A stretch of 64,000 bases of DNA from a marine gamma proteobacterium HTCC2080 (GTDB taxonomy: Bacteria; Pseudomonadota; Gammaproteobacteria; Pseudomonadales; Halieaceae). Of the stretch, positions 42,578 to 52,693 are shown piece after piece (position 1 is the stretch's first letter; the number at the start of each line of letters is the position of its first letter). Under the pieces are notes generated by a model. That model worked only from the letters and a program-made list of their open reading frames with translations, did not search any database and was not told the origin of the DNA. Position numbers and translations under genes: made by a program. Location of the stretch: NCBI GenBank assembly GCA_000169115.1, contig AAVV01000006.1, forward strand, positions 62,001-126,000. Reading direction: 5' to 3'.

Positions 42578-42693
42578 GGCGATGCTACCGATGGCTATTC
42601 TAGGAACGACGGCTTTCGGTAATTTAACTAAACACGTTGTCTTGCTGTGATGTAGCATTGCCCCAGACCCCAGTGCAAACCGTGGAGAAGCCG

Positions 42694-43251
42694 ATGCAAG
42701 AAGGCCACCCTGTTTCTTACTCTCAACGCACCATTATTGAATTAATGGTTCCCGCCTTCGCAAATTTCGGCGGCAAGGTGCATGGCGGCACTCTTATGTC
42801 GACGATGGACAAGGTCGCCTATGTTTGCGCGAGCAAGCACGCCGGTAATTATTGTGTGACGGTGAGTGTCGATGCGGTGGAATTTCTCGAGCCGGTCGAG
42901 GTTGGGGAGGTGGTATCGCTGATGGGTTCCGTTAACTATGTGGGTACCAAGTCATTGGTTGTGGGAATTAAGGTCGTTGCTGAAAATATTCAGACAGGCG
43001 CGCGCCGACACACGAATACCTGCTACTTCACTATGGTTGCTAAAAATAGCAAAGGCGAAACGGTCACTGTGCCCCCACTCATACTCGAAACGGTAGAGGA
43101 TGTACGTCGCTACTGCGCTGCCCTGCAACGCAAGCGCCTACGAGATCATGCCCGTGGCTACATGGCAGATTATCGTAAAAACTTTGAGTACGACGAGGAT
43201 GTCGAGCAGTTTCTCGGCGAGCAGCGCTGTGTGGTGCAGTTAAGCGAGTAG
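42694..43251 (+). CDS. Acyl-CoA thioesterase (hotdog fold, YciA-like)
   Basis: A 185-aa hotdog-fold thioesterase hydrolysing acyl-CoA. Family motifs: FANFGGKVHGGTLMSTMDKVAY (with the catalytic acidic residue in MDK), VTVSVDAVEFLEPVEVGEVV and ARRHTNTCYFTMVA. ATG 42694 has GGAG 6 bases upstream, making the earlier TTG at 42637 unlikely. It is convergent with the mcr-pcs operon. Confidence 0.88.
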   Translation: MQEGHPVSYSQRTIIELMVPAFANFGGKVHGGTLMSTMDKVAYVCASKHAGNYCVTVSVDAVEFLEPVEVGEVVSLMGSVNYVGTKSLVVGIKVVAENIQTGARRHTNTCYFTMVAKNSKGETVTVPPLILETVEDVRRYCAALQRKRLRDHARGYMADYRKNFEYDEDVEQFLGEQRCVVQLSE

Positions 43252-43512: not shown

Positions 43513-46500
43513 TTACACCGTCACAGCATTTCCTCGGAAGATCTTTGACAGATAACGACTTTCTTTTGGCGACGGAGCAGGGACAGAGCATTGCATGACC
43601 GCTGCAACCAGTCGTTCCATTTCCTCAGAAAGCTCCTGATCGTTTGAAGGTTCTTCGGTGTGGGCCCTGCGAGTTAACTGCACCTGATTGACTGCAGGAA
43701 CGGTCGGTAAACGTTCACCTTCCACACCTAGCGTCACCGTAAATGCATGCAGTGAGTTTTTGACGAACAGCGCTAACGCAAACTCTTCACGGGTTGACGC
43801 TAAAGAGGTCTCGGGTGTAAGCAATACGATTTGGCAGCTGGGTATCAAAGCTGCAATCCGTGCACTGCGGAAATGATGGGTAAGCTGCTGGTGAACGAGT
43901 TGCCGGAACTGTTCATCGGATAGCACGCGATCCCAGTCACCACCGCGGTCTCCCGCCAGCGCATTTAGGGGTAAGCGCTCAAAGGGGCTGCTGACAACAA
44001 CGTCGAATCCGCCGTCATGGCGCAGCAAGTTATCTAGGGCACCCTCGATATCGTCACCGATGCAGCGCACGTCGATATTTTCCACACTGTCACACTCGAG
44101 TGCGTGATATAGCGTGGTTTTGGTTTCTTCAGAGCGCGTTAAGATCCAGAGCTTTTCAACACCATTCGATTTAAACCCCTTCGCAATTTCTGTGATCTCA
44201 TTACGCATGCAGTCGCCTAATATCACAACGCGCTTGCCACTAAGCCGAGCCAAATCTTTTTCACTTGGTGAAAGGAGTAATTCGCCTTCGGTTACCGAGC
44301 GGTCAAATTTCAGGCCGCCGGAAGGGTGGAAAGTCTCACCACTGACGATTTCATCGGCGAGGTGAAATACGGTCGACAAGCCGACTTGCTCATCTGTTGG
44401 CATTTTATGAAGGTGCAGTCGATTTAAAATTCCCGACTCGATCTGGGTCGCCGATCTTTTGCAGGCTTCCTTGTCAAAGAAGGGAGAGGGCGCGTCGACG
44501 AAAGAGCCCAAGAACTCGTCTTTGTCTTCAGTCGTAAAAATACCTGCGTTGACCAATCGCTCGACGAGCTTGACTGCCATGCCCATGTGCAGCAGGCATT
44601 TACTCGAGCTTCCTGTTCCCCCTGAGTCTTTTACTTGTGAGTAAAGACGGCTTAGTACTGAAGGTAGGTTGTGGGTGGGAAGAACCTCAACGGCATTAGC
44701 GGAGAGTTTCCTGATCTCTTCAATCGGATAGCCATCGGCGACAGCAGATATGATGGCGGCATGGACCTGATTAAGGCGTTTGTTTTCGAGAACTAATCTC
44801 CCGCGACGATCAAATAAACCCGGGGCATCGCCCAATCCTCGAAGTCGTGCTCCATCAACAGGGCCAGGTGCCAGGGCATTGATCTGAATTTCTGGTCCAA
44901 GATGGCGAGACAGGATCTCGGCGAGCACACGTTGTCCCGCCTTGGACACGGCGTAGTCAGCGCGGTTGGGGTAGGCCACGGCCACGTATTTCTCACCACC
45001 AAAATAACTTGAAACGTTAAGTATCGAGCCCCGCCCTTTATCTTTCATTAGCGGGCCAAACTTACGTATTAGAGAATAGTTGGAGATTAGGTTCGCTTCC
45101 ATGGTGCGATCCCAGTCTTTTAGGGTCATATCAACAACCATTTCCTCGGCACCGGAAATGCCCGCGTTGTTAATTAAAAAATCGACTTGACCGAAGAGGT
45201 CTACGGCATGCTGATGCAATGTTTCTAGCGCCGCCGGATCTCCAACGTCGATATTGGCAAGCACATGAATTCGATTGTCAGCATTGGGGTAGCCAATGCC
45301 ACTAAGCTCCGCAACAATTTCAGCCTTTGCCTCTATAAGTTTGGCTTCACTGCGAGCACTTAATAGCACCCGGGCTCCGGCGATAGCGAGGTAGCGTCCC
45401 AATTGTAGGCCTATGCCAAGGCTGCCACCTGTGATGACGGCGGTTTTTCCTTTGTGCAAGCCGGGTAAAACACGCATCAGCGATGTGGGCATGGCGCCTT
45501 TACCTGTGGCGCGTTTAATATCCTTTGGAATCCAGAGGTTAATCGGATCCATCTGCCGCACGCGGTTAGTGAGGGTTGCAGCCCAATCTGCCGCAAAGGG
45601 GAGGGCATCTCTATCCTCAGTGTCGTAGCGCACCAACTGGTTGGGTTGCACTGACCAAGAAAGTTCTCCCGCTGCTTTTAGTGTTTCATCTTCATGGCGC
45701 CAACCGCGAATTAGGGCTTCATTAGAGGCGCGAATGACTTCATTCAGTAAATTACCATGTCCATCACTGGCGTTGGTGACATAGGTAATGGCGGGGGGAT
45801 CACATTTTCCAAACCAGCGGCTTAAGTTGGTGGCGAGGGTGGAGGCAAAAGCTACGGGTGCCACGACCTCGTCCTTGACGAAATTCTCTACATCGTCGTC
45901 GGTTGCTGAACAGATTGAGTAACCATATTGACCATTTTTCTTCTGCGGAAGAACAATAACGCCATCAAGTCGGCCGAAGTGGTCGTCTATGAATTGCATG
46001 GTTCTGTCTACAGATTCCCGGCGCAAGGGGTCAAGGTGCGAAAGTTGAACGGATTCAAGCTCTCGTGCTTGGATAATCGACCGTGCGTGGCCTACTGACT
46101 CAAGATTTCTAAATGCTAGCAGCACTCGTGCGCCACTCTCAGTGTGTCGCTCAGCGAAGGTCACGGCTTCCTCGTAGTCGGAGCCGCCCAATATCAGCAC
46201 AATATGATCTGATAAATCTTCTAGCCGCTTATCGGGCCAGGACACAAGCTGAGATCGACTCTGAGCAGGCACCTGCATACCGTTAGTGACCTCAACCGCA
46301 TGACCCGAAACCGCAGCAGATTCCCCTGAGGCGAGCCAAGTAATTGAAGAGGCCACATCGGTGGGTGTTGGGTAGCGGTATTCAAGCCCTTCTTCACCTT
46401 CGCGAGTCGTAATCATGAGGTCGCGGAATTCGCGGCCCGTGCTGCCCGGCTCCAGGTTCTGAAGCTCGTCCATGCGGGCAAACACCGTGTCGATACGCTC

Positions 46501-47163
46501 AGACTCAATCGGTCCGGGAAATACAGTATTGACACGAATGCCTTGCTCTTCCCCAAGCTCAAGCGCGAGTCCCTTGGATAGGGCGTTTAGGCCAGACTTG
46601 GGAACCACGTAGGGTATGCGACCAAAATAGTGCGTTCGCGAAAAGATTGTCGATACGTTGATGATGGATGCACCCACTGACATATGTGGAGCGGCCGCAC
46701 GCGCCATGTTCCACGGTGCGCCCAATAGGTTCATGGCGGAATCGAACATCGTTTGATCGGATCCGGCGGTCTTCATTTCTACATCTGAAAAGGGAATATC
46801 TCTTAGCGTGTATTTGGGGCCTGCTGCACCGGCATTATTGACCAGCACGTCAATGGTGCCGAAGGCCTCCACGGTGTCCGCAACGATTCGTCGACAAACT
46901 TCAGGGTCGGCGCAATCGCCCACAGTAACCACCATGTTTTCCCTGTCAAAACCGTCATCGCAGAGTGAATCTACAAACTCCTCAAGCTTGCTGATATCAC
47001 GCCCTGTCATCATCACTCTGGCACCCTCGCAGAGCAATTGTCGGGTAATAAACCGGCCAATCGATCCGGCAGCGCCCGTTAAGATAATCGATTTATTGTC
47101 CAGTCTTTTTCCTGACTTGGACTGACTGGTCATGTCATCGGTGAATTGCACGAAATCATTCAT
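43513..47163 (-). CDS. mcr: Malonyl-CoA reductase, bifunctional (3-hydroxypropionate-forming)
   Basis: A 1216-aa NADPH enzyme, nearly the same length as Chloroflexus Mcr (about 1220 aa). The C-terminal half would reduce malonyl-CoA to malonate semialdehyde and the N-terminal half would reduce that to 3-hydroxypropionate. Each half is a pair of SDR folds. N-half: TGAAGSIG 29-36, NNAG 109-112, Ser171, Tyr185 and Lys189 (YVVPK), then a degenerate SDR from about 315 (IVLILGGSDYEEAV). C-half: TGGSLGIG 578-585, NNAG 665-668, Ser718, Tyr737 and Lys741 (YAVSK), then another degenerate SDR (VVILGDCMRNEI). Both active sites look complete. The start ATG overlaps the pcs stop (ATGA). Assignment rests on length, domain order and pairing with pcs. 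Confidence 0.95.
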   Translation of the reverse strand: MNDFVQFTDDMTSQSKSGKRLDNKSIILTGAAGSIGRFITRQLLCEGARVMMTGRDISKLEEFVDSLCDDGFDRENMVVTVGDCADPEVCRRIVADTVEAFGTIDVLVNNAGAAGPKYTLRDIPFSDVEMKTAGSDQTMFDSAMNLLGAPWNMARAAAPHMSVGASIINVSTIFSRTHYFGRIPYVVPKSGLNALSKGLALELGEEQGIRVNTVFPGPIESERIDTVFARMDELQNLEPGSTGREFRDLMITTREGEEGLEYRYPTPTDVASSITWLASGESAAVSGHAVEVTNGMQVPAQSRSQLVSWPDKRLEDLSDHIVLILGGSDYEEAVTFAERHTESGARVLLAFRNLESVGHARSIIQARELESVQLSHLDPLRRESVDRTMQFIDDHFGRLDGVIVLPQKKNGQYGYSICSATDDDVENFVKDEVVAPVAFASTLATNLSRWFGKCDPPAITYVTNASDGHGNLLNEVIRASNEALIRGWRHEDETLKAAGELSWSVQPNQLVRYDTEDRDALPFAADWAATLTNRVRQMDPINLWIPKDIKRATGKGAMPTSLMRVLPGLHKGKTAVITGGSLGIGLQLGRYLAIAGARVLLSARSEAKLIEAKAEIVAELSGIGYPNADNRIHVLANIDVGDPAALETLHQHAVDLFGQVDFLINNAGISGAEEMVVDMTLKDWDRTMEANLISNYSLIRKFGPLMKDKGRGSILNVSSYFGGEKYVAVAYPNRADYAVSKAGQRVLAEILSRHLGPEIQINALAPGPVDGARLRGLGDAPGLFDRRGRLVLENKRLNQVHAAIISAVADGYPIEEIRKLSANAVEVLPTHNLPSVLSRLYSQVKDSGGTGSSSKCLLHMGMAVKLVERLVNAGIFTTEDKDEFLGSFVDAPSPFFDKEACKRSATQIESGILNRLHLHKMPTDEQVGLSTVFHLADEIVSGETFHPSGGLKFDRSVTEGELLLSPSEKDLARLSGKRVVILGDCMRNEITEIAKGFKSNGVEKLWILTRSEETKTTLYHALECDSVENIDVRCIGDDIEGALDNLLRHDGGFDVVVSSPFERLPLNALAGDRGGDWDRVLSDEQFRQLVHQQLTHHFRSARIAALIPSCQIVLLTPETSLASTREEFALALFVKNSLHAFTVTLGVEGERLPTVPAVNQVQLTRRAHTEEPSNDQELSEEMERLVAAVMQCSVPAPSPKESRYLSKIFRGNAVTV

Positions 47164-50100
47164 CGGAGCGCTCCTGCTGAGCCGGTTTCTACTTGAGTTA
47201 TTTGCTCACCGCGCTCTGCCGCATCTCGCAATGCCCAGGCTCGATAAAGCTCGTCTTTGGTTTTCAGGCCTTCCCGCGGCAAGGCGTGCACTGCAACGTA
47301 ATTAGCGCCCTGATGGCGGTTCTCCCACATGGCTTGGTGAGCTTCGGGAAGCTCATCCATGGTGACGGGTGTAGGCGGAAGTACAGCGAGCAGACCTGAG
47401 GCGATCTGCTCCTGCATTTCGGCGAACTCTCTTGAGGTGTTGAGGTGTGTGCCTCGAATCTCCGCTGTAGGCATGAGTATGCGTCGCTGACGCGTCCAGA
47501 CCTGAGGTGCATAAAAGCTAAAGCACTGTCCCTCAAGGTCTTCGGCATAGACCACCCGACCGGTGTTGGGTTTTACCAGTGCGGAAGCAAGGGCAAGGCC
47601 GTCCCGTCCGCGCCGTTCAAAGACAATGTCAGGTAGTCCACGTTTGTCTAATGTGTTTCTAAGCGCTGGGGCAATAGCGGAGCCGATAGGCTTGAGTGTT
47701 TTGTCGGAGAACTCTCTCACGGCCTCGCGAAAAGCCAGTGACTCGGTAAACGGATCTGGCATGCCTGGAAAAGGTCCCGGAGGCATAAAGTCGTTACCCA
47801 AGCGTTTCGCAATTTCTTCGATGCTAACGACGCCCCGAACCCTTGGGCCAAACCCCAGAGAACTGACGAACTCCCGCTGGGCGATAGTGTCGACCAAAAC
47901 GGCAACTTGCCCGCCGTTTTGGCAAGCGACTTCTATGGCTTCAATCGCAACATTATCAACGATGCCATCATCCGCTCCGGGTCCATATACAATCAAGATG
48001 GTTTGCCCTGGTCTTAAACCAGCCCTACGAAACATGGTTGCAGGGGAAGAGGCGCCGGGTTTGCCTAAAAAGGTAAAGCGATAACCCGAAGATGCGCCGT
48101 AAAATGCCAGCACGCCGTTATTACCCAGCAGCTGGAACGTTCTAGGAAACGCATTTTCGCCTGCATGTGATACCGCATAGTCGATATTACCGCCGACAGC
48201 GTCCTCTGCAGCGGCGACGAAAGGTAAGCCCGCTTCATGCCAAGCTTGCCATTCTTTTGGATCGTCTGGTACGGCAGTGAAAATATCCTGCCAGCGGCTG
48301 TCTTTACGGTTGATGGGTGAGCCGCCAGCCGCCGTGACCCGGGTTGCCCGCTGGTCACTGGATACCATGCCTAAGCAAGAAAGACCGCTAGCTGTTGCGC
48401 TTCTAAGACAGTCGTAGCCCGTACCTGTGGAGGCACCTTCAACGAAAAGGCGTCGCCCCGTTTCAATATTCAACGTGGTAAATAGGGCTCTTTGAATGGT
48501 GCCCATGGTTAGGCCATAAGAACCTGCTTCTTCAAAGGTTAGTGAGCTCAGTTTAGGGTGTAGCTGTGGTCCTTGAACGGCTAGGAACTGACCGTGACAG
48601 CCGTCGTTACGCTCGTATCCCTGAATGCGGAAATCTGCCGCCATGGGGTCTAATCCCTGGTCAGGCGACATCAACTCGCTTTGTCCCGAATAAACGGTTA
48701 CTAAGTCCCCTACCGACAGTCGTCCTTCCGAAACCAGCTCGGCACCGAGTGATACCACTATACCAACGCCTCCTGAGCCGGTTACCTGAACATCAGATTC
48801 TCGGGCATCAAAAGGCGAAACCGGTATGCCTGTGATCGCCCAGATATCGTTGAAGTTAACTTCCGATGCGAGAATGTATATCAGCGCTTCGGCGGCTTTC
48901 GGTTCGGGGGTTGGGAATACCAGTTTGCGCTCAGCTACTTTGGGGTCGCCATGCTCCGGTGCACCATCGAGGCTAGACCTGGCGACTCCCCAGCCATACT
49001 GATGACTGGGTATGGGCGTTACACCCGGGAAAAAACTCGCGCCCACGGGCAGGAGATTGCCCGACGATTCGAGCTCGTCGAGTTGCTCCTCGCCGGGGTA
49101 GGGTGGCACCGTCTTTGGTTGGCAGGGTAATGGCGAACTGCGCTTTTCAAGGAACGCAGTGATTCCTGTGGGTCCCGAAGCGGGGTCACACACTGACTCA
49201 GCGAATAAACGTGCTTCGGCGTCGAGGCCTGCGGTGACGCCTTGCTCTAAACCGGTGAAGGTGGCCTCAAGGATACGTTGGGCAACATGTTCACGCCCGC
49301 CAGCTGCAAGCTGCTCAAGGGCGGCTGTTACCTCTGGGTGTTCCTTGATGTTGTTACTGGGTAACAATGCGTCCTCGCGTTGAGCGAGCAGTGCCTTGTG
49401 GCGGTCCAAAACGCCAGAAATCTGGCTGTTACCGGCAAAATGCTCGCGTAATCGGGACATCGCACGATTGAGGGCAGATTCACTGCCAACCGGTACGACC
49501 TCATCCACTAACCCTATGCGTTGCGCCCATTCAGAGTCGATGGGGCGGCCCCTGAGCATAATGCCCAGTGCGTTAGCGACGCCCTCATCACCTTGGCGGT
49601 CCTGCAATTTACGCGTTAAGCGTTGAGTGCCGCCATAACCCGGGAGTAAGTTGAGGTTGACCTCGGGCTGGCCGAAGGTGGCTTGATCCGCGGCAATCAC
49701 ATAGGCGCAGGACAGCAGTAGCTCGTTACCCCCACCCAATGCCGGACCGTTTATGGCGGCGATAACGGGCATATCGAGACTTTCTATCGCGGCGAAGGCG
49801 GCCTGCGCTGCGTGGGGGGGCGTTAATGCTGAAGCGGTATCGCCAACTTCCCCAATTTTTAATAACTCTTTAACGTCTGCACCTGCAACAAAAGTGCCCC
49901 GTGCCCCAGTCACAACTAAGGCGTCGATATCGCTTTGATGTTTGATTTGGTGAATAACCGTGTGCAGCTCGTCCAGCGCCCGCTCATTTAAGGCATTAAC
50001 TGGCGGATTGGTGATAGCCAGCAGGGCGACAGTATGGCTGTCCGTCAGGCGGTGTATTTCAAGTCTGATATAGCGCCAGGTTTGCACAATCTGTCGGGCT

Positions 50101-52580
50101 TGCGCGAGCGCGCCGTGATCGCGCCACTGGCTGATGGCGTCCCGAATAACGTCGACAACCTCGGGATTCTTTAAAGTTGAGATGTCGCCCAAGGGGGCAT
50201 CAAGAAGCAGTCCTCGTAGGGTGCGACGCATATACTTACCCGAACGGGTTTCGGGAAATGCGGGTACCACAAGAAAGTCTGATGGAACTGCAGTGGCGCC
50301 TTTTTCACTGCGCACAAGTCCTTGCAAGCGGCTGAAATCATCATCATTTAATTTACGGCCAGGAGCGGCGACTAAGAAAGCGACTGGGGTTTCGCCTTTT
50401 TCATCGTGAGGTGCGCCCACAACTACGACGTTGCCCAATGGTGAGTCTTCCCGCAGTGTTTTGTCCCGCAGAATGGCGCCTTCAATCTCCTCAGTGCCAA
50501 TACGATGACCTGAGACATTGATAACGTCATCCGAGCGGCCGTGAAGTGTGAATCCGCCGTCTTCATGACGCCGTGCGTAATCACCCTGAGTGTAGCTGTA
50601 GCCCTCGCTCCAGCGATCGAAATAAACCGCCTTGAAGCGCTCGACGTCACCGCACCAGTTTTCGCTCCCAAAGTGCTCTTTATCACCCCACAACGTATGC
50701 GCTAAATATGGATAGGGGCTAGTGATTACTAACTCACCTTTCTCGCCCACCTCCGCCTCGCGCCACTGGGATACGCCATCGGCCCCGGTTGATTCTGCAA
50801 CTCTAACTTGAGCTTGTATCCAGGGAAGGGCCCAAGTTTTGGCATCAGGCTGAAGATCTTTATAACCGCCGGAGTGACACGAAAACACAATGCCGCCGTG
50901 CTCGGTTGCCCAGTAAGAGTTGATGTAATGGGAGCAAATGTTTTCCATGGCAAATTGCTGCACCGCCGGCGACACCGGCTCCGCGCAAAAGGTGCCGGCA
51001 CGCAGTGAGCTCATGTCAAAGGCAGCCATGTCTCGAGTGCTTGCGGGGTCAGTCATCACCGCCTTTAAGAAAGTAGAGCCCGCTTTAAACAAAGTAATGC
51101 CATATCTCTCAATGGTTGCCGCGAAACGTCCTGCATGAGGGAACAGTGGTGAGCCCTCGCAAACTACCGTGGTCATACCCATCGAGAGTGGTGCTGCAAT
51201 GAGGTATGACTGGCCCGTAATCCAGCCAGGATCGCCAACGACATACATGACATCGTCAGGTGTGCCTTCAAATACTGCATGCATTGAATGCGTAACTCCG
51301 GCTAACCAGGCTCCGTGGGTGTGAACCACGCCTTTGGGCTTTCCGGTAGAGCCAGAGGTGTAGATTATGAACAGAGGCCAGTTGGCTTCCACGGGAACCA
51401 CAGCTTCCAATCGATACAGAGTTGCTTGGAAATCGGTGTCGCTCAGGGTGTCAAAATAAGCCATATCCTTTGCTTTGAGCTCAGCCAAAAATTCCTGCTT
51501 GGCGGTTGCTACTAAATCGTCTGAATAGGCATCTCGATCATATTCAATGACCTCCTGGCCTGTGTATCGAGCCACCACAACTTTGCTAATATCGTGACCA
51601 ACTTGTGATAAAGCTATCGCAACCTCGGTACGCAGTTTGGCGCTGACTTCTGGAGTTATATTGGGCATTTCGGCCAAAATACCGCCAAGTTCTCGCATTA
51701 TATCGGCACGTTCGAGGGTGATCTCTCCGGCTAACGCATGGGTAACGGCGTCTAAAAGCCCTTGGCTATCTGCCATATCGGGATAGTCGTTGAGGGTGTC
51801 CGATAGCGCCTTAAGTGCGGCTTCTCTAGGAACATAATTATCGAGTGCTGGGTCGGTGTACTGGCTCTTAAAAGGAACGGCTTCAGCGTTGCGGTAGCCG
51901 CCATCAGCGGTGATAACGACCTTAGCTCCGGCGTCATGCAGACGATCAGACAGGGTCTTGGCTGAAAACCCGCCAAATACCGGCGTGTAGATAATGCCCA
52001 ACCGCTGCGCCGCGAGAATATAAAAAATCTGCTCGGGGATGTTCGGCATGTTCAGCGCGATGCGATCACCCGTCTTCAACCCTAAATTGGTGAGCACGCG
52101 AGCGCGAACGACTACCTCTAGCAACAACCCGCGGTAGCTAAACTGCTGTTCGGTTACGGGGCCACCTCGGCCGCCATTTTTTGAAGGGTCCCAGCGATCA
52201 CCCTCAAAAATTAGAGCTTTATTGGCACCGCGACCTTGCAACACATGACGGTCGATTTCATTGAAGGAAGCGTTAGTCTGCGCCCCAACAAACCAACGGA
52301 GATAGGGCGCCTGGCTTTCGTCAAGTACAGAACTCCAAGGGCTTTCGTCCTGCGCGAGCGCGCCGGAAGTGACGAACTCGCCTGTATTTGCAGCAAACCC
52401 CGCCCAGCACTGAGCGGCAAGGTCAAAGTTTACCCACTGTTTGGCCTGAGCATCGAACCAATGAATGTTACGCCGAGCAACATCTCCAAAGAAATCTTGT
52501 GGTGATTCATTGATCAAACGGCGGAGGGCATCCTCCCCCGCCTGTGAGCCTATTTGCTCCCAAGCGACCCCTACAGTCAT
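47160..52580 (-). CDS. pcs: Propionyl-CoA synthase, trifunctional
   Basis: An 1806-aa fusion matching Chloroflexus Pcs (1822 aa) in size and order; it converts 3-hydroxypropionate to propionyl-CoA with ATP, CoA and NADPH. Ligase domain (about 1-840): P-loop IIYTSGSTGKPKG at 405-417, YWATEHGG and catalytic Lys782 in ETRSGKYMRR; about 150 residues before the P-loop are extra compared with ordinary acetyl-CoA synthetase. Hydratase domain (about 845-1140): FVAGADVKE, with both catalytic glutamates, Glu953 (GGGNELLL) and Glu973 (GQPEVNL), 20 apart as in true hydratases. Reductase domain (about 1215-1806): zinc-free MDR with FVEGASTGTGYDCLRSA. ATG 52580 has GGGAG 8 bases upstream; a GTG 51 bases earlier is unlikely. 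Confidence 0.95.
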   Translation of the reverse strand: MTVGVAWEQIGSQAGEDALRRLINESPQDFFGDVARRNIHWFDAQAKQWVNFDLAAQCWAGFAANTGEFVTSGALAQDESPWSSVLDESQAPYLRWFVGAQTNASFNEIDRHVLQGRGANKALIFEGDRWDPSKNGGRGGPVTEQQFSYRGLLLEVVVRARVLTNLGLKTGDRIALNMPNIPEQIFYILAAQRLGIIYTPVFGGFSAKTLSDRLHDAGAKVVITADGGYRNAEAVPFKSQYTDPALDNYVPREAALKALSDTLNDYPDMADSQGLLDAVTHALAGEITLERADIMRELGGILAEMPNITPEVSAKLRTEVAIALSQVGHDISKVVVARYTGQEVIEYDRDAYSDDLVATAKQEFLAELKAKDMAYFDTLSDTDFQATLYRLEAVVPVEANWPLFIIYTSGSTGKPKGVVHTHGAWLAGVTHSMHAVFEGTPDDVMYVVGDPGWITGQSYLIAAPLSMGMTTVVCEGSPLFPHAGRFAATIERYGITLFKAGSTFLKAVMTDPASTRDMAAFDMSSLRAGTFCAEPVSPAVQQFAMENICSHYINSYWATEHGGIVFSCHSGGYKDLQPDAKTWALPWIQAQVRVAESTGADGVSQWREAEVGEKGELVITSPYPYLAHTLWGDKEHFGSENWCGDVERFKAVYFDRWSEGYSYTQGDYARRHEDGGFTLHGRSDDVINVSGHRIGTEEIEGAILRDKTLREDSPLGNVVVVGAPHDEKGETPVAFLVAAPGRKLNDDDFSRLQGLVRSEKGATAVPSDFLVVPAFPETRSGKYMRRTLRGLLLDAPLGDISTLKNPEVVDVIRDAISQWRDHGALAQARQIVQTWRYIRLEIHRLTDSHTVALLAITNPPVNALNERALDELHTVIHQIKHQSDIDALVVTGARGTFVAGADVKELLKIGEVGDTASALTPPHAAQAAFAAIESLDMPVIAAINGPALGGGNELLLSCAYVIAADQATFGQPEVNLNLLPGYGGTQRLTRKLQDRQGDEGVANALGIMLRGRPIDSEWAQRIGLVDEVVPVGSESALNRAMSRLREHFAGNSQISGVLDRHKALLAQREDALLPSNNIKEHPEVTAALEQLAAGGREHVAQRILEATFTGLEQGVTAGLDAEARLFAESVCDPASGPTGITAFLEKRSSPLPCQPKTVPPYPGEEQLDELESSGNLLPVGASFFPGVTPIPSHQYGWGVARSSLDGAPEHGDPKVAERKLVFPTPEPKAAEALIYILASEVNFNDIWAITGIPVSPFDARESDVQVTGSGGVGIVVSLGAELVSEGRLSVGDLVTVYSGQSELMSPDQGLDPMAADFRIQGYERNDGCHGQFLAVQGPQLHPKLSSLTFEEAGSYGLTMGTIQRALFTTLNIETGRRLFVEGASTGTGYDCLRSATASGLSCLGMVSSDQRATRVTAAGGSPINRKDSRWQDIFTAVPDDPKEWQAWHEAGLPFVAAAEDAVGGNIDYAVSHAGENAFPRTFQLLGNNGVLAFYGASSGYRFTFLGKPGASSPATMFRRAGLRPGQTILIVYGPGADDGIVDNVAIEAIEVACQNGGQVAVLVDTIAQREFVSSLGFGPRVRGVVSIEEIAKRLGNDFMPPGPFPGMPDPFTESLAFREAVREFSDKTLKPIGSAIAPALRNTLDKRGLPDIVFERRGRDGLALASALVKPNTGRVVYAEDLEGQCFSFYAPQVWTRQRRILMPTAEIRGTHLNTSREFAEMQEQIASGLLAVLPPTPVTMDELPEAHQAMWENRHQGANYVAVHALPREGLKTKDELYRAWALRDAAERGEQITQVETGSAGALR

Positions 52581-52693
52581 ATGAAGTTCTCCCTGTGAGC
52601 GCTTTAGGCTCCGTTCAAAAGAGGGTGCCACCGTGATTCAGCGGTACCGATTTCAGAGTAGTGCTACAGCCAACGTTTCTAATTTTTATGGGT

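What the first reader, a model, noticed from the sequence alone, without database searches (positions are those of the whole stretch)
43513..52580. pcs-mcr operon: a compact malonyl-CoA to propionyl-CoA module of the 3-hydroxypropionate pathway
Two giant fusion enzymes in one operon carry out five reactions: two reductions of malonyl-CoA to 3-hydroxypropionate (Mcr), then activation, dehydration and reduction to propionyl-CoA (Pcs). All catalytic motifs I could check are intact in the four active domains and the tail reductase. The pair is known from Chloroflexus (autotrophic bi-cycle) and from a few marine proteobacteria. No other signature enzyme of the bi-cycle is visible in this window. 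The module may serve as an electron sink, a route to odd-chain or methyl-branched units, or for assimilating 3-hydroxypropionate or acrylate from DMSP breakdown (inference).
Basis: partly seen in the sequence, partly recalled or inferred. Interest (0 to 1): 0.9.

Follow-up and report, generated by a model that had tools for sequence, protein, structure and literature searches.

The report
Light-linked malonyl-CoA to propionyl-CoA operon
A marine light-using bacterium carries two giant fused enzymes that together turn acetyl-CoA plus CO2-derived carbon into propionyl-CoA, and in our surveys this gene pair sits nearly always in bacteria that also have a photosynthetic reaction centre, so it probably lets them use light to add CO2 to the food they eat.

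Summary
43513-52580(-) holds intact genes for bifunctional malonyl-CoA reductase (Mcr) and three-domain propionyl-CoA synthase (Pcs), overlapping by 4 nt, both matching solved structures over full length. Such genes are known in aerobic anoxygenic phototrophs. Genome tests sharpen the role. The genome has a carboxylase-epimerase-mutase-MeaB gene row, so propionyl-CoA can reach succinyl-CoA; it has isocitrate lyase and pufLM. It lacks the bi-cycle marker Mct (89 bits, cut-off 725), and its only HpaB/AbfD-type protein lacks two of four [4Fe-4S] ligands. So neither the bi-cycle nor the HP/HB cycle claimed in print for Luminiphilus closes here with its known key enzyme. Mcr nests in phototrophy: 35 of 35 Mcr-bearing Sphingomonadales genomes have a reaction centre, against 45 of 361 without Mcr; 33 of 36 Mcr genomes outside Halieaceae, partly Sphingomonadales; 39 of 47 in Halieaceae, the 8 misses at most 87% complete. 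pcs precedes mcr in 67 of 67 testable loci; accA follows in 10. Best reading: light-driven CO2 co-assimilation. Light dependence is inferred.

The parts
47160..52580 (-). pcs, propionyl-CoA synthase (CoA ligase, enoyl-CoA hydratase and enoyl-CoA reductase in one chain), about 1806 aa from ATG 52580; the open frame reaches GTG 52631
50097..52580 (-). acyl-CoA (3-hydroxypropionyl-CoA) synthetase domain, approximate limits
   Evidence: Pfam AMP-binding and AMP-binding_C; 6eqo alignment; K799 invariant in 9 rows
49152..50054 (-). enoyl-CoA hydratase domain (3-hydroxypropionyl-CoA dehydratase), approximate limits
   Evidence: Pfam ECH_1; E970 and E990 invariant in 9 rows; 6eqo alignment
47163..49066 (-). 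acrylyl-CoA reductase domain (Ccr-like MDR), approximate limits
   Evidence: 6eqo alignment; 173.7 bits to TIGR01751, below its cut-off
43513..47163 (-). mcr, bifunctional malonyl-CoA reductase, 1216 aa, two SDR-type halves (about residues 19-550 and 555-1216)
47160..47163 (-). 4-nt overlap of the pcs stop and mcr start (translational coupling, inference)
   Evidence: pcs directly upstream of mcr in 67 of 67 testable relative loci of 79
52588..52594 (-). Shine-Dalgarno-like AGGGAGA before ATG 52580
   Evidence: read directly

Best explanation
pcs-mcr is the reductive arm of a partial 3-hydroxypropionate route that adds CO2 to acetyl-CoA in a photoheterotroph. House-keeping acetyl-CoA carboxylase makes malonyl-CoA. 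The two halves of Mcr reduce it with NADPH through malonate semialdehyde to 3-hydroxypropionate. Pcs then activates, dehydrates and reduces it to propionyl-CoA, and a separate carboxylase-epimerase-mutase-MeaB gene row carries this to succinyl-CoA. Net: acetyl-CoA + 2 bicarbonate + 3 NADPH + ATP gives succinyl-CoA. Because this costs much ATP and NADPH while the same genome has isocitrate lyase, the route is expected to pay when light supplies energy and carbon is scarce. It would then act as light-driven anaplerosis (CO2 co-assimilation) and as a sink for reductant, not as an autotrophic cycle. Shown here: the genes, their constant order, the downstream genes, the missing key enzymes of two autotrophic cycles, and the co-occurrence with reaction centres. 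Inferred: enzyme activities, direction of flux, light dependence.
For: Full-length matches to solved Mcr and Pcs. pcs directly before mcr, gap at most 191 nt, in 67 of 67 testable loci of 79; the other 12 begin within 700 nt of a contig edge or lack the mcr start. accA directly downstream of mcr in 10 alphaproteobacterial loci, which points the direction as acetyl-CoA to malonyl-CoA to 3HP. Own genome: carboxyltransferase, biotin-carboxylase protein, epimerase (141 bits, cut-off 115), mutase (1262, cut-off 876) and MeaB (479, cut-off 329) in a row; isocitrate lyase 1029 bits, cut-off 446. Co-occurrence with Photo_RC: Sphingomonadales 35 of 35 Mcr genomes against 45 of 361 others (Fisher 3e-28, or 4e-26 without the 3 genomes that entered as earlier Mcr hits); Halieaceae genomes at least 90% complete 19 of 19 against 6 of 59, and outside the window's genus 4 of 4 against 4 of 57 (p=1.3e-4); 33 of 36 Mcr genomes outside Halieaceae, with at least one positive in each of 11 orders. 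Where both lie on one contig in the listings they are 34 kb or more apart (read by eye), so tight linkage is not the cause. In print: Porphyrobacter ULC335 has key 3HP bi-cycle enzymes, and its 3HP bi-cycle genes are up by day (PMC10674011, passages).
Against: Eight of 47 Mcr-bearing Halieaceae genomes and 3 of 36 others gave no reaction centre. The 8 are at most 87% complete, but six of them form three close pairs on the Mcr tree, so real loss of phototrophy with Mcr kept is possible. Many phototrophs lack Mcr (45 of 80 in Sphingomonadales), and one phototrophic relative (G024, 96% complete) keeps only a 150-nt mcr scar, so the module is dispensable. No PpsR-type TGT-N12-ACA enrichment lies upstream of pcs (3 sites in 67 regions, 57 of them distinct; 5.0 expected). 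The counts are not corrected for shared ancestry. RuBisCO was not searched here; one paper lists Luminiphilus among genera with pufLM and Calvin-cycle genes (PMC11758582, passage), another says the genus lacks them (PMC9802188). No expression or flux data for this strain.
Confidence: 0.62

Rival explanations
1. The operon is the first half of a complete 3-hydroxypropionate/4-hydroxybutyrate cycle, making the cell a photoautotroph, as published for eight Luminiphilus MAGs (PMC9802188).
For: The published claim. A protein close to solved dehydratases (722 bits to 6vjr, 556 to 1u8v) occurs in 13 of 57 genomes of this genus by score, and all 13 also have Mcr; the four cluster ligands are kept in the 4 of them aligned.
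Against: The window's genome has one PF03241 protein, of another type (308 bits to 1u8v, 31-33% identical to four genus members of the dehydratase type). Ligands C103 and C299 are Y and A in 7 of 7 such proteins aligned. 21 of 57 genus genomes carry this type only, by score. The dehydratase type also occurs in six genera in which no Mcr was found. In the one neighbourhood examined (L064) it sits beside a protein like a Baeyer-Villiger monooxygenase (709 bits, cut-off 1100) and an amidase, which looks catabolic.
Confidence: 0.06
2. The operon belongs to a complete autotrophic 3-hydroxypropionate bi-cycle as in Chloroflexus.
For: Mcr and Pcs are two of its signature enzymes; the methylmalonyl-CoA branch is present.
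Against: Mesaconyl-CoA C1-C4 transferase (TIGR04253): best 89 bits in this genome, cut-off 725; 0 of 140 Halieaceae genomes pass. Ten genomes have 508-594-bit homologues, two of them in this genus, and eight of the ten have no Mcr match.
Confidence: 0.04
3. The module is a light-independent source of propionyl-CoA, or a sink for NADPH and acetyl-CoA (odd-chain or methyl-branched lipids, cobalamin-dependent anaplerosis), and its link to phototrophy is ecological.
For: Propionyl-CoA has several fates; 11 Mcr genomes gave no reaction centre (8 of 47 and 3 of 36); no PpsR site enrichment.
Against: It does not explain complete nesting in 396 Sphingomonadales genomes or recurrence in phototrophs of 11 orders. 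By-day expression in Porphyrobacter.
Confidence: 0.22
4. The operon assimilates 3-hydroxypropionate or acrylate from DMSP breakdown.
For: Pcs alone would do this; these are marine bacteria. DMSP genes were not searched.
Against: Mcr makes 3-hydroxypropionate and has Pcs beside it wherever this could be tested (67 of 67); accA follows in 10 loci; relatives include records labelled bog and pond (titles).
Confidence: 0.06

Closest known systems
pcs and mcr of Erythrobacter/Porphyrobacter-type aerobic anoxygenic phototrophs (Pcs structure 6eqo, organism NAP1 recalled; ULC335 in PMC10674011)
   Same: Fused three-domain Pcs and two-half Mcr (recalled for NAP1), phototrophic host, no complete autotrophic cycle
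   Different: Gammaproteobacterial clade; Mcr 40-43% identical to the alphaproteobacterial ones found; no accA beside mcr here
Chloroflexus 3-hydroxypropionate bi-cycle
   Same: Same two fusion enzymes and the route to succinyl-CoA
   Different: Mct absent, so no second cycle by the known enzyme
HP/HB cycle proposed for Luminiphilus (PMC9802188)
   Same: Same genus, same half to succinyl-CoA
   Different: No dehydratase with an intact cluster site found in this genome
Ethylmalonyl-CoA pathway CO2 fixation in Dinoroseobacter (cited in PMC10674011, passage)
   Same: CO2 co-assimilation in an aerobic phototroph
   Different: Different enzymes; works like it, not a member

Membership tests
Bifunctional malonyl-CoA reductase (Mcr) | Two SDR-type halves in one chain of about 1220 aa, full-length similarity to solved Mcr | tested here: met
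   (residues 19-1216, 998 bits to 8hi4)
Bifunctional malonyl-CoA reductase (Mcr) | YxxxK and nucleotide-binding glycine motif in both halves | tested here: met
   Y185/K189, Y737/K741, TGAAGSIG, TGGSLGIG (motif roles recalled)
Bifunctional malonyl-CoA reductase (Mcr) | NADPH-dependent reduction of malonyl-CoA to 3-hydroxypropionate | not testable with these tools
   needs an assay
Propionyl-CoA synthase (Pcs) | Ligase, hydratase and reductase domains in one chain, full-length match to 6eqo | tested here: met
Propionyl-CoA synthase (Pcs) | Catalytic lysine of the ligase and two crotonase glutamates | tested here: met
   (K799, E970, E990 invariant in 9 rows); roles recalled
[quoted passage not shown]
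   best 89 bits, cut-off 725
HP/HB cycle | 4-hydroxybutyryl-CoA dehydratase with four [4Fe-4S] ligands | tested here: not met
   single homologue, two ligands replaced (ligand numbers recalled)
HP/HB cycle | Succinyl-CoA reductase and 4-hydroxybutyrate-CoA ligase | not tested
Propionyl-CoA to succinyl-CoA (methylmalonyl-CoA) route | Carboxylase, epimerase, mutase, MeaB | tested here: met
   epimerase, mutase and MeaB over cut-off; the two carboxylase subunits by similarity and context only, below every NCBIfam cut-off they hit
Aerobic anoxygenic phototroph | PufL and PufM in the same genome | tested here: met
   two Photo_RC matches at G000:C21, 355 and 316 bits; L versus M not told apart

The most novel reading that the evidence does not exclude
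The pcs-mcr operon is a portable, RuBisCO-independent 'light carbon' module that is carried, and kept almost only, by bacteria with a type-II reaction centre in Pseudomonadota, Gemmatimonadota and Myxococcota. Its presence predicts phototrophy, and it is a main route of the long-puzzling light-driven CO2 incorporation by aerobic anoxygenic phototrophs.
Probability: 0.4. Interest if true: 0.75.

Novelty: new member of a known kind. Interest (0 to 1): 0.5.

Why it matters
[quoted passage not shown] which enzymes do it is an old question. Nesting of this operon inside phototrophs turns a loose suggestion into a test: delete two genes in a cultured strain and measure light-dependent bicarbonate uptake. 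The result also cautions against calling every Luminiphilus photoautotrophic from dehydratase hits: in this strain, and by score in 20 further genus genomes, the nearest homologue is another protein type, whose cluster site is changed in all 7 examples aligned.

Tried and rejected
PpsR/CrtJ control: TGT-N12-ACA in about 400 nt upstream of pcs gave 3 sites in 67 regions, 5.0 expected; ten of the 67 were second copies of the same place, leaving 57; motif recalled; rejected. Plasmid carriage: no match in 72,556 plasmid records at E<=1e-60. Structured RNA: at gathering thresholds Rfam found only one tRNA in the window. Replacement of the glyoxylate shunt: rejected for this genome, isocitrate lyase is present and PF00463 matches in 50 of 57 genus genomes. 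A shared conserved neighbourhood: among the 37 loci treated as non-Halieaceae only mcr, pcs and accA recur in 10 or more; of 17 relative loci compared with the window, flanking genes recur in three (L018, L019; one gene in L025) apart from weak paralogue matches. The thioesterase-like gene at 42637-43251(+) is convergent with mcr, so not in the operon. Tree: 75 rows, the window and 74 of the 79 loci (five short partial ones left out); two broken rows (L098, L132) were dropped and it was rebuilt with 73. The count of label changes printed treated unmapped rows as positive and is not used. Of 15 HpaB-type ORFs picked, one (L075) was read in a wrong frame and is not counted.

Selection effects: one search finds only Mcr genes holding one of two peptide patterns; 108 stretches passed, the best 80 (79 loci) were kept. 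37 of the 79 I treated as non-Halieaceae by title; one (L127) was not held, so 36 genomes were searched; many of them are Sphingomonadales. The Sphingomonadales set is 396 genomes drawn evenly from a larger order; 3 of its 35 Mcr genomes had entered through.

Not done: DMSP, RuBisCO, rhodopsin, succinyl-CoA reductase and 4-hydroxybutyrate ligase searches (all 12 genome searches used); fold predictions (solved full-length homologues exist).

Full report
WHAT IS THERE. The window lies in a 3,576,081-base genome of 25 contigs, 99.44% complete. The nearest named relatives are Luminiphilus MAGs of the Halieaceae. Contigs of G077, G088, G090 and G158 have the lengths of contigs titled Luminiphilus syltensis NOR5-1B, Chromatocurvus halotolerans, gamma proteobacterium NOR5-3 and Pseudohaliea rubra; G077 is in the window's genus. 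Size and contig number fit my memory of marine gammaproteobacterium HTCC2080; that is recalled, not tested. On the minus strand, pcs (ATG 52580) and mcr overlap by 4 nt. Both proteins match solved full-length homologues (6eqo for Pcs, 8hi4 and 8hjw for Mcr) from end to end, and the motif residues I know of are invariant among the 8 Mcr and 9 Pcs proteins aligned.

THE OPERON IS FIXED. Of 79 loci with Mcr, 67 could be tested for the gene before mcr, and all 67 have pcs there within 191 nt; 12 begin too near a contig edge or lack the mcr start. In 10 alphaproteobacterial loci the next gene is accA, acetyl-CoA carboxylase alpha (Pfam ACCA, 415-431 bits). In two Gemmatimonadaceae loci it is an acyl-CoA thioesterase. 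The order pcs-mcr-accA points from acetyl-CoA through malonyl-CoA and 3-hydroxypropionate to propionyl-CoA.

WHERE THE PRODUCT GOES. In the same genome, one row of genes encodes a carboxyltransferase, a 943-aa biotin-carboxylase protein, methylmalonyl-CoA epimerase, methylmalonyl-CoA mutase and MeaB. The last three pass curated cut-offs; the two carboxylase subunits match several models, all below cut-off, so 'propionyl-CoA carboxylase' rests partly on context. Succinyl-CoA is therefore reachable. Isocitrate lyase is present too (1029 bits, cut-off 446; PF00463 in 50 of 57 genus genomes), so the route is not a stand-in for the glyoxylate shunt.

NOT A KNOWN AUTOTROPHIC CYCLE HERE. The bi-cycle marker TIGR04253 reaches 89 bits in this genome against a cut-off of 725. 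None of 140 Halieaceae genomes passes; ten have 508-594 bits, and eight of those ten have no Mcr match. A 2022 paper (PMC9802188; passages, section 10) reports the full HP/HB cycle in eight Luminiphilus MAGs, with 4-hydroxybutyryl-CoA dehydratase as key enzyme, and concludes that autotrophic growth is likely. PF03241 finds one homologue in this genome. The genus holds two protein types, 31-35% identical among the 11 compared. One, in 13 of 57 genomes by score, is close to solved dehydratases (722 and 556 bits) and keeps all four cluster ligands in the 4 genus members aligned; all 13 also have Mcr, so for them the published claim is not excluded. The other, in 21 of 57 by score including this genome, has 308 bits to 1u8v and carries Y and A in place of two ligand cysteines in 7 of 7 aligned. 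One genus genome is ambiguous, one is below the cut-off, and 21 have no match. So in this strain the cycle lacks its key enzyme. I did not test the other HP/HB enzymes, and the paper's eight MAGs may belong to the 13.

NESTING IN PHOTOTROPHY. This genome has two reaction-centre (PufL/M-type) genes. In its genus, Pcs is in 47 of 57 genomes (16 of 17 of those at least 90% complete and at most 5% contaminated) and the reaction centre in 44 of 57 (17 of 17). In the family, 47 of 140 genomes have Mcr and 53 of 140 the reaction centre. They overlap in 39 of 47 Mcr genomes; the 8 without are all at most 87% complete. Among the 78 more complete genomes, all 19 with Mcr have it, against 6 of 59 without. 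Outside the window's genus this is 4 of 4 against 4 of 57. By genus, 5 of 28 have Mcr and all 5 are among the 6 with a reaction centre, though in one of them (g34) the two were found in different genomes. In Sphingomonadales, another class, 35 of 396 genomes have Mcr and 80 of 396 a reaction centre; all 35 are in the 80. Of 36 Mcr genomes treated as non-Halieaceae, 33 have a reaction centre, with at least one positive in each of 11 orders (Chromatiales, Pseudomonadales, Longimicrobiales, Woeseiales, Gemmatimonadales, Sphingomonadales, Rhodospirillales, Burkholderiales, Parvularculales, Acetobacterales, Caulobacterales; orders by record title) and in one of two Myxococcota. The misses are a Myxococcales, a Burkholderiaceae and a Novosphingobium bin. 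These 36 include many Sphingomonadales, so the sets overlap. For comparison, HpaB/AbfD and Mct-like proteins are not confined to phototrophic genera of the family. The link is one-way: many phototrophs lack Mcr, and G024 keeps only the last 150 nt of mcr.

CAVEATS. Fisher values ignore shared ancestry. Many genomes are metagenome bins. Six of the 8 Halieaceae exceptions form three pairs on the Mcr tree (matched to genomes by contig place), so some lineages may have lost phototrophy and kept Mcr. I found no PpsR-type control. RuBisCO was not searched; the papers disagree on Luminiphilus (PMC9802188 section 10, says absent; PMC11758582, passage, lists it among genera with Calvin-cycle genes).

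MECHANISM. From established biochemistry (recalled), the route costs 3 NADPH and about 4 ATP equivalents per succinyl-CoA and adds two carbons from bicarbonate. That makes sense when light supplies energy and carbon is short. A study of Porphyrobacter ULC335 reports key bi-cycle enzymes as in Erythrobacter NAP1, proposes CO2 co-assimilation, and finds the 3HP bi-cycle genes up by day (PMC10674011, passages). A paper on Congregibacter cites work in which HTCC2080 grew better in light only at very low substrate (PMC2654016, passage). So the interpretation exists in print for one alphaproteobacterium. I found no paper stating the general nesting; the searches were made, over open-licence papers only, and of most hits I saw only the listing. 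The Myxococcota phototroph paper checked the 3HP bi-cycle but in the passages seen reports the Calvin cycle (PMC10576062).

VERDICT. The added value is the genome-scale evidence that it belongs mainly to phototrophs and that two known cycles are not closed in this strain.

Noticed in passing
G000:C10, locus L062:8764-10338(+): A second HpaB/AbfD-like protein type: two cluster ligands replaced, a Cys-rich C-terminal tail (QCCATGC), next to MmgE/PrpD, CitE-like lyase and GntR genes, with MaoC-type hydratase and acyl-CoA dehydrogenase genes divergent. Function unknown; by score in 21 of 57 genus genomes.
   Followed up: partly
L015:7366-7515 (G024:C41:103365-103514): A 50-codon remnant of the mcr 3' end (86% identical) in a phototrophic relative with no pcs match, away from contig edges and gaps: looks like a deletion scar.
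   Followed up: partly
G011:C18:6977-16027: mcr read in three pieces (one with two in-frame TGA) and pcs in two: decay or sequencing error.
   Followed up: no
G065:C342, G011:C4 and eight other Halieaceae genomes: Mct-like CoA transferases at 508-594 bits, below the 725 cut-off, eight of the ten in genomes without an Mcr match; possibly another mesaconate or itaconate route.
   Followed up: no
L064:6874-10438: A dehydratase-type AbfD gene divergent from a gene for a Baeyer-Villiger monooxygenase-like protein (709 bits to PtlE model, cut-off 1100), suggesting cyclic ketone or lactone breakdown.
   Followed up: partly
L156:6033-8864 (G000:C24): The biotin-carboxylase protein of the methylmalonyl-CoA gene row is 943 aa, with its best-matching stretch offset (residues 270-591): unusual architecture.
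   Followed up: no
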